A stretch of 64,000 nucleotides of DNA. Origin: Planctomycetota bacterium (GTDB lineage: Bacteria > Planctomycetota > Planctomycetia > Pirellulales > PLA5). A program made the position numbers and the translations under genes. Each line of letters starts with the position of its first letter. The stretch's first letter is position 1. The notes under the pieces were generated by a model. It was not told the origin of the DNA and ran no database searches. It was given only the letters and a program-made list of their open reading frames with translations. Positions 9,804 to 11,378 of this stretch are shown one piece after another. The DNA is taken from the NCBI GenBank assembly GCA_003576845.1, contig QEVJ01000013.1, positions 1 through 64,000 on the forward strand. The letters run 5' to 3'.

Positions 9804-10058
9804 TGCCGGGAACCACGCGACGCCCTCTCGACGCGGTTCGCACAAAAGTGCTCCGCGGCGGAGAGGGCGTCGCCGTTTTATTGCGCCGCGGCGCTCGCGT
9901 GTGGCGAAATCTGCCGTGCTGCTTGCCGCAGGTCTCCGAGATATACTGGCGTTGGGCGCGAGGCCAAGCGAACGTGGCCGGGCGCGCCGTCGAACGAATT
10001 CGCCTCGAATGCGACCGCAAACGAAGCTGCAAGTCGCCACCACACTCCGGAGGCCACC

Positions 10059-11378
10059 ATGAAAGTTCCCATCGCTACGACGCTACTTGGACTCTGGCTG
10101 TGCATTGCGGTGCTCGAAGCGCGGGCTGCGGAGCGACCGCCGCTGCCGCTCGATCGGTTCGAGAAGTTGCACGGATTGCTGCAACGCCAGCCGCACGAAT
10201 CGCGGTGGATGGAAATCGAGTGGCATCCGAGCGTGTGGGAAGCGCGGAAAAAAGCAGCGGCCGAGGGTAAGCCATTGTTCATCTGGGCGGGAAGCGGCGG
10301 AGCGCCCGCCGCGGGCTGCTGAACGGCGGGACGCCTGGGCCGTGAGCCCGGATTGTGGACCGACGAAAACATTCGCCGCATCCGCGAGCATTTCATCGCC
10401 GTCGTCGTGCCGACCGAGTTATGCCGCGACGACGGGCCGGAAGGCGCGTTTCTCCGCGCCGCCGGCATCGACAAGCATTGGGTCACGTCGTCCGGATACA
10501 TGGACGCCGTCTCCGCCGGCGGCAAGTCGCTCGGCCAGGGAATGGTGTCCGACGAGACGCTCGCCGCGTTTCGGAAGTTGCCGGAGACCGAACGCGCCGC
10601 CGGCGCGATCGAAGTTCCCGAAATCGAACCGGCGGACGAGCGAATTCCCGCCCCGCCGAAAAACGGGCTCATCTTGCGGGTCCACGGCCGGTTCTTGAGC
10701 CGCACGGCCGACGGCGAGCTTCGCCACACGACGGGCGAGGACTTCGCGCAGCTTCGCGGCGACCCGGAACGGCTGCGGGCTTTTCGCATGTTGTTCGAGC
10801 CGAACGTCGAGTACTTATGGCTTGCGGAGGCCGAGTGGAAAGCACTCGTGCCGAAGACGCCGCGCGCGGGCGACGTGGTCGAAGTCGATCCGGCGATTGC
10901 CGTGCGGATGGCGCGGTTTCATTTGAGTCCGCGGCGAGCGCTGACCAGCGAAGACGGAATCGTGCCGCGCCGCGAGGTGAAGGCGGCCAAGCTGCGGCTC
11001 GTCGTGGATCAGGTCACCGAAAGTCGCGTCCGGATGCGGATGGCAGGCTTCGTCCACACGGGAACCGATTACGACGCCGCGAAGGCAACGACGCCGAACG
11101 GGCCGCTCGGCTTCGGATTTGCATCGGACATCGACGGCGTGCTCGAATACGACCGCCGCAGCGGGAAGTTCGTGCGGTTCGACATGATCGCGCCCGGCGA
11201 TGTCTGGGGCCGCTGGGGCGACGCCAACAACAACAGCCAGGCCATCGAACGCCCCGGACGGTCGCCGATCGGGTTTGCGTTCGAACTGGCCGTCGGCGAT
11301 TCGCCCAGCAATCGGATTCCGCCCGGCGGACACGGAGGTCGGGCGCTCAGAAACGGGTATTTTGCGGCGGAAGAATGA
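10059..11378 (+). CDS. Thioredoxin-like secreted protein with in-frame UGA (candidate selenoprotein)
   Basis: One frame of 440 codons is interrupted only by a TGA at 10320-10322 (codon 88). Upstream are a signal peptide (ATTLLGLWLCIAVLEARAA) and a thioredoxin-like beta strand (AAAEGKPLFIWAGSGG) leading into APAAGC. The TGA follows that Cys directly, giving a Cys-Sec pair at the spot where thioredoxin-fold proteins keep their redox centre. Downstream, in the same frame, a coherent protein of about 350 residues continues (LWTDENIRRIREHFIAVVVP...). A hairpin with its loop 18 bases after the TGA fits the bacterial SECIS rules. The reading is one protein of 439 amino acids if UGA is decoded as selenocysteine. 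Alternatives are a nonsense mutation, or two separate polypeptides with the second starting at TTG 10353. The C-terminal domain is unrecognised. RBS: GGAGG before the ATG. Confidence 0.7.
10335..10351 (+). promoter_or_regulatory. Putative bSECIS hairpin
   Basis: Stem CTGGGC (10335-10340) pairs with GCCCGG (10346-10351), six pairs including one G-U. The loop CGTGA (10341-10345) has a G at its second position. The distance from the TGA to the loop is 18 bases. Published bacterial SECIS rules ask for a 16-37 base distance, a 3-14 base loop, a stem of at least four pairs and a G in the first two loop positions; all are met. Confidence 0.5.

What the first reader, a model, noticed from the sequence alone, without database searches (positions are those of the whole stretch)
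10059..11378. Candidate selenoprotein: in-frame UGA right after Cys in a thioredoxin-like secreted protein
Seen: one frame spans a signal peptide, a thioredoxin-like strand (EGKPLFIWAGSGG), Cys87, then UGA (codon 88) and a further 351 codons with consistent protein-like composition in the same frame. A hairpin (10335-10351) with its loop 18 bases after the UGA and a G at the second loop position fits published bacterial SECIS rules. A Cys-UGA pair at the redox site is the classic context for selenocysteine. Inference: the protein is made as one chain with Cys-Sec.
Basis: partly seen in the sequence, partly recalled or inferred. Interest (0 to 1): 0.82.

Follow-up and report, generated by a model that had tools for sequence, protein, structure and literature searches.

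The report
Undescribed planctomycete thioredoxin-like selenoprotein family
The in-frame stop codon is real and almost certainly read as selenocysteine, making this one member of a large secreted redox-protein family across Planctomycetota that I could not find in current databases, in which selenocysteine is never seen replaced by ordinary cysteine.

Summary
The genome carries tRNA-Sec, SelA, SelB and a SelD that itself has an in-frame UGA. Homologues align over the whole chain. Of 80 distinct full-length relatives across Planctomycetota, 72 have UGA at exactly this codon. The other 8 have Ser (6), Asp (1) or Pro (1), and none has Cys. The SECIS hairpin is conserved in position and covaries: 94% of stem cells are paired, against 27-48% when the stem is slid. 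Family presence tracks SelA across 392 genomes (odds ratio 10, p about 1e-14).

A profile match to solved structure 3ira puts the UGA at the nucleophilic first Cys of a thioredoxin CxxC. The usual second Cys is replaced by Gly. A partner Cys sits next to Sec instead (CU or CxU), or occasionally at UxxC. Every sense-codon form has lost both Sec and its neighbouring Cys. The C-terminal domain is predicted confidently (pLDDT 90) and has no significant match in the PDB.

No Pfam or NCBIfam model covers the family, and a 2026 selenoprotein inventory lists no evident equivalent. I take it as a new family of a known kind: a secreted, Trx-fold selenol oxidoreductase with unknown substrate.

The parts
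10049..10053 (+). Shine-Dalgarno-like GGAGG, 5 bases before the ATG
   Evidence: read directly
10059..11378 (+). Selenoprotein coding sequence, 439 residues with UGA at codon 88 read as selenocysteine; true stop TGA 11376-11378
   Evidence: translation; whole-length homologues with the same UGA
10059..10127 (+). Signal-peptide-like N-terminus, about residues 1-23
   Evidence: sequence; predicted helix 5-23; no dedicated signal-peptide program was run
10149..10583 (+). Thioredoxin-fold domain, about residues 31-175
   Evidence: profile match to PDB 3ira, E=4e-6; Foldseek DsbH 2ju5 prob 0.84; AlphaFold model mean pLDDT 86
10317..10319 (+). Cys87, partner cysteine directly before Sec
   Evidence: 64 of 72 UGA forms have Cys at -1 or -2; 0 of 8 sense forms do
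10320..10322 (+). UGA, codon 88, selenocysteine at the position of the first Cys of a CxxC
10335..10351 (+). Bacterial SECIS apical hairpin CUGGGC-CGUGA-GCCCGG
   Evidence: 99 of 105 stem cells paired in 21 relatives against 70.3 +/- 4.2 in synonymous shuffles; covariation 0.682 against 0.222
10668..11351 (+). C-terminal domain, residues about 204-431, mostly long antiparallel strands plus helices; no known relative
   Evidence: AlphaFold pLDDT 90, pTM 0.88; no PDB match with E<=0.001; no Pfam or NCBIfam family

Best explanation
The gene encodes one continuous, exported selenoprotein. SelB and Sec-tRNA(Sec), guided by the hairpin just after the UGA, insert selenocysteine at codon 88 (shown by comparative evidence; not by experiment). 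The residue lies at the nucleophile position of a thioredoxin-like fold (shown by alignment). Inferred: the selenolate attacks a disulfide or other oxidised sulfur substrate outside the cytoplasm. The mixed selenenylsulfide is then resolved by the adjacent Cys (CU here, CxU or UxxC in relatives) instead of the missing CxxC cysteine. The C-terminal domain probably supplies the substrate or partner site. Members with Ser, Asp or Pro have lost both redox residues and are probably non-catalytic paralogues. The stated confidence is for Sec insertion in a Trx-fold protein; the disulfide-reductase chemistry I hold at about 0.55.
For: Sec machinery in the genome: tRNA-Sec 69.9 bits over cut-off and called tRNA-SeC(tca) by ARAGORN, SelA 1.9e-136, SelB over cut-off, SelD over cut-off with its own UGA in CAGU-AGK context. 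Of 80 distinct full-length relatives, 72 have UGA at the same column. SECIS covariation; synonymous-null pairing z=6.9; the Arg codon forming the loop is CGT in 19 of 21 against 71 of 543 Arg codons elsewhere, p=2e-14. A second subfamily keeps a hairpin in another register, 106 of 175 cells against 73.3 +/- 4.3. Co-occurrence with SelA: 95 of 104 family genomes against 147 of 288 others. In two genomes of one genus the gene lies beside a selB-selA-(FAD/selD) operon. Trx fold. Joint absence of Sec and partner Cys in all 8 sense forms, at least 4 independent changes on the tree.
Against: No expression, selenium or protein data. Six UGA-bearing genomes (G001, G278, G359, G407, G457, G472) show no SelA; several are fragmented drafts, but this was not resolved. 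Six of 72 UGA forms have no partner Cys at CU, CxU or UxxC. Substrate, reductant and direction of the reaction rest on fold analogy only. Gene neighbours in the window (PPC-domain protein, sulfatase) give no functional hint.
Confidence: 0.93

Rival explanations
1. The UGA is an ordinary stop or a nonsense mutation / sequencing error: the 87-residue protein is the product, or the gene is a pseudogene.
For: Long open stretches around stops are common in this GC-rich window; automatic annotation would end the gene there.
Against: Same UGA in 72 distinct relatives from many families of the phylum, with homology on both sides; covarying hairpin; complete Sec machinery.
Confidence: 0.01
2. UGA is read through as another amino acid (Trp by near-cognate decoding, or Cys/Ser on tRNA-Sec) and not as Sec.
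For: Sense forms carry Ser, the amino acid first loaded on tRNA-Sec; decoding was not measured.
Against: No homologue has Trp or Cys; the hairpin, SelA and SelB association point to Sec; SelA converts Ser to Sec.
Confidence: 0.03
3. Sec is present, but the protein is not a disulfide oxidoreductase: it is a peroxidase or reductase of another oxidised or halogenated compound, or a metal-binding selenol protein.
For: No CxxC resolving cysteine; six members have no partner Cys at CU, CxU or UxxC; large uncharacterised C-terminal domain.
Against: 66 of 72 UGA forms have Cys at -1, -2 or +3, and the neighbouring Cys is absent together with Sec in all 8 sense forms, pointing to a selenenylsulfide cycle; that would also fit a peroxidase.
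Confidence: 0.35

Closest known systems
DUF255 / DsbH thioredoxin-like proteins (Pfam PF03190; PDB 3ira, 2ju5)
   Same: Trx fold; Sec aligns with the first Cys of CHWC; similar sequence after the active site
   Different: Second Cys replaced by Gly; Sec by UGA; extra C-terminal domain; only 3 of 24 members give a weak Pfam hit
VPGUxxT family thioredoxin-like (seleno)protein (NF041382, NF041383)
   Same: Trx-like selenoproteins; weak profile hits from a few members (best E 6e-4)
   Different: No VPGUxxT motif; the window protein itself has no hit; about 440 residues with a C-terminal domain that matches no NCBIfam model
Trx7/PDZ domain-containing (seleno)protein (NF041199)
   Same: Thioredoxin_7-like domain with Sec; weak hit from 1 member
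   Different: Motif there is CxxU, here CU, CxU or UxxC; no PDZ match here
Thioredoxin-like selenoproteins Sec.1 (CxU) and Sec.2 (UxC), listed in PMC13188914
   Same: Trx-like, Sec close to Cys; CxU resembles the commonest subfamily here
   Different: Assigned to PF13192, which none of these members matched
Mammalian thioredoxin reductase GCUG tail (own knowledge)
   Same: Vicinal Cys-Sec pair
   Different: Different fold and place; analogy of chemistry only

Membership tests
Bacterial selenoproteins | In-frame UGA conserved at one column with homology on both sides | tested here: met
   72 of 80 distinct full-length relatives; alignment A1
Bacterial selenoproteins | SECIS hairpin shortly after UGA, G/GU in the apical loop | tested here: met
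   bSECISearch itself not available
Bacterial selenoproteins | selA, selB, selD, tRNA-Sec in the genome | tested here: met
Bacterial selenoproteins | Cys homologues at the Sec position (usual supporting evidence, not a strict requirement) | tested here: not met
   None within the family; only a distant cousin domain in the same genome, L078, has Cys (ECSC-ANSR)
Bacterial selenoproteins | Selenium in the purified protein | not testable with these tools
   needs experiment
Thioredoxin fold | Trx-like fold with the active residue after the first core strand | tested here: met
DUF255 / DsbH | Score over Pfam gathering cut-off and CxxC motif | tested here: not met
   no hit for the window protein, weak hits in 3 of 24 relatives; UxxG instead of CxxC
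VPGUxxT and Trx7/PDZ selenoprotein families | Significant NCBIfam match and motif | tested here: not met
   window protein no hit; best relatives 6e-4 and 2e-3; motifs absent

The most novel reading that the evidence does not exclude
A phylum-wide family in which Sec is ancestral and is not exchangeable with Cys: it is lost to Ser, Asp or Pro together with its partner cysteine, never converted to Cys. The resolving cysteine has moved between CU, CxU and UxxC around a fixed Sec. It works with a C-terminal domain of a fold not yet in the PDB, in a dedicated extracytoplasmic planctomycete redox reaction.
Probability: 0.5. Interest if true: 0.75.

Novelty: new variant of a known kind. Interest (0 to 1): 0.62.

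Why it matters
It adds a large selenoprotein family that standard gene calling would cut in two at the UGA, present in about a quarter of sampled Planctomycetota genomes and often in several copies. Sec-to-Cys exchange is the pattern that many selenoprotein finders rely on; a family lacking Cys forms would be missed by them and offers a test of why some sites need selenium. The joint absence of Sec and partner Cys in the sense forms gives a direct mechanistic prediction.

Tried and rejected
Open-frame length as evidence: rejected, many comparable stretches in the window. Single-sequence folding of the SECIS: inconclusive, the fixed-register and covariation tests were needed. Alignment A2 had wrong minus-strand coordinates and was replaced by A3. 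Gene neighbourhood of the window gene: no hint. Fold search of the whole protein and of the C-terminal domain: no significant match in PDB; whole protein none in viral structures. Plasmid records: no match. Literature: no paper found naming this family. PMC4807772 reports Sec genes in planctomycetes, but its selenoprotein table is a supplement I could not open, so overlap is possible.

Full report
OBSERVATION. The frame, the UGA at 10320-10322, Cys87, the 351 codons after it and the hairpin at 10335-10351 are exactly as described. Taken alone these facts are not strong. The window is 65% GC and holds about 30 other stops flanked by comparably long open stretches, and the single hairpin does not beat synonymous-codon shuffles. 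Relatives decide the question.

MACHINERY. The window lies in a 7.05 Mb assembly, 99% complete. It holds a tRNA-Sec over the Rfam cut-off that ARAGORN also calls, SelA at 1.9e-136, SelB over its curated cut-off and SelD over its cut-off with one in-frame UGA in the sequence CAGU-AGK. The related loci with names are Planctomycetota MAGs, some Gemmataceae.

HOMOLOGUES. A protein search of genus and order found relatives over the whole chain, each with one TGA inside. The alignment of 24 shows the UGA column invariant, with W55, P72, R95 and G360 the only other invariant sites. A profile search of 197 genomes of the order found 23 strong matches (E below 1e-48), all with TGA. Of 392 genomes spread over the phylum, 104 matched at 1e-12. 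I fetched the best of these and merged them with the earlier loci: of 80 distinct full-length sequences, 72 have TGA at the column, six have Ser (TCA, TCG, TCC, AGC), one Asp, one Pro, none Cys. The profile had Cys in that column, so it does not select against Cys forms. On the tree the sense forms need at least four changes, all forced by well supported branches.

SECIS. In 21 relatives with the loop at +18 the five apical pairs form in 99 of 105 cells; 2000 synonymous-codon shuffles gave 70.3 +/- 4.2, at most 82. In the covariation test 94.3% of cells pair, 27-48% when slid, and four of five pairs change on both sides. The loop sits on an Arg codon that is CGT in 19 of 21 but in only 71 of 543 Arg codons elsewhere in these genes. 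A one-codon insertion moves the hairpin with the Arg (L011). Another subfamily uses a hairpin with loop at +23, in which not every member fits. Shuffles preserve the protein but not the relatedness of sequences, so the z-scores are optimistic; the slid control does keep relatedness.

CO-OCCURRENCE. SelA (TIGR00474) is in 95 of the 104 family genomes and in 147 of 288 others, odds ratio 10, p=1e-14, not corrected for phylogeny. Of the nine family genomes without SelA, three have sense forms only (G293 and G368 Ser, G488 Pro), one has only a weak match (G544), and five carry UGA forms in draft assemblies (G278, G359, G407, G457, G472). G001, in the order sample, also carries UGA forms without a SelA match. 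In two genomes of one genus (G113, G117) the gene is close to a selB-selA-(FAD oxidoreductase/SelD fusion) operon.

FOLD AND MECHANISM. The profile matches PDB 3ira (DUF255-like) at 4e-6; the UGA column aligns with the first Cys of CHWC and the +3 position is Gly. The AlphaFold model has mean pLDDT 86; DsbH is the best sensible structural neighbour of the N-terminal part. In UGA forms, Cys is at -1 in 18, at -2 in 46, and at +3 in 2; the remaining 6 have none of these. None of the eight sense forms has Cys at -1 or -2. I read this as a Sec-Cys redox pair in which Sec attacks the substrate and a nearby Cys resolves the intermediate; this step is inference. A signal-peptide-like start implies action outside the cytoplasm. 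The C-terminal domain is confidently predicted but has no significant solved match and no Pfam or NCBIfam family; a substrate or partner role is a guess.

COMPARISON. No Pfam or NCBIfam model covers the protein. Weak hits to VPGUxxT, Trx7/PDZ, DsbH and Thioredoxin_7 show superfamily kinship, not membership. The 2026 inventory of 119 prokaryotic selenoprotein families and subfamilies (PMC13188914) has no entry that fits by model or motif; I compared its listed models through NCBIfam and Pfam and its motifs by eye, not its representative sequences. Planctomycete Sec use is known (PMC4807772).

VERDICT. Sec at codon 88 is as certain as comparative evidence allows. The family appears undescribed in the resources I could reach. 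Its enzymatic role is open.

Noticed in passing
L086 (G001:C356:7000-10500), TGA at locus 856 and 1776: Two neighbouring genes, each with an in-frame UGA in a thioredoxin-like context (NGYSU-LGSNLMR, TRHCU-LAGYSMR) and a hairpin after it: further candidate selenoproteins of a shorter cousin group.
   Followed up: partly
L085 (G001:C92), L087 (G023:C229), L082 (G050:C94): More cousin genes with UGA in Trx-like context (EFTU-NNATKFR, GFTU-NNAQAFR, KFCU-TNARLAR) and hairpins; L078 in the window's own genome is a Cys counterpart (ECSC-ANSRFFR).
   Followed up: partly
L077 (G000:C27, minus strand): Another GRCU-GGAFAAR start in the window's genome, but the frame stops 18 codons later: a decayed copy or an assembly error.
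   Followed up: no
L076 (G000:C259:16-717): Fragment of the later part of the family with a TAG inside, at a contig end.
   Followed up: no
L012 (SHZY01000147.1, 1385-6703): Four family members in tandem in one Lake Baikal Gemmataceae MAG, all with UGA; the last is cut by the locus end.
   Followed up: partly
L124 and L132 (G356:C321): Paralogues on one contig, one with Asp and one with UGA at the Sec position: a good pair for studying loss of Sec.
   Followed up: partly
L093:6176-8323 (-), L092:4676-6832 (+): A protein with pyridine nucleotide-disulphide oxidoreductase and AIR-synthase (SelD-like) domains, next to selA and selB.
   Followed up: no
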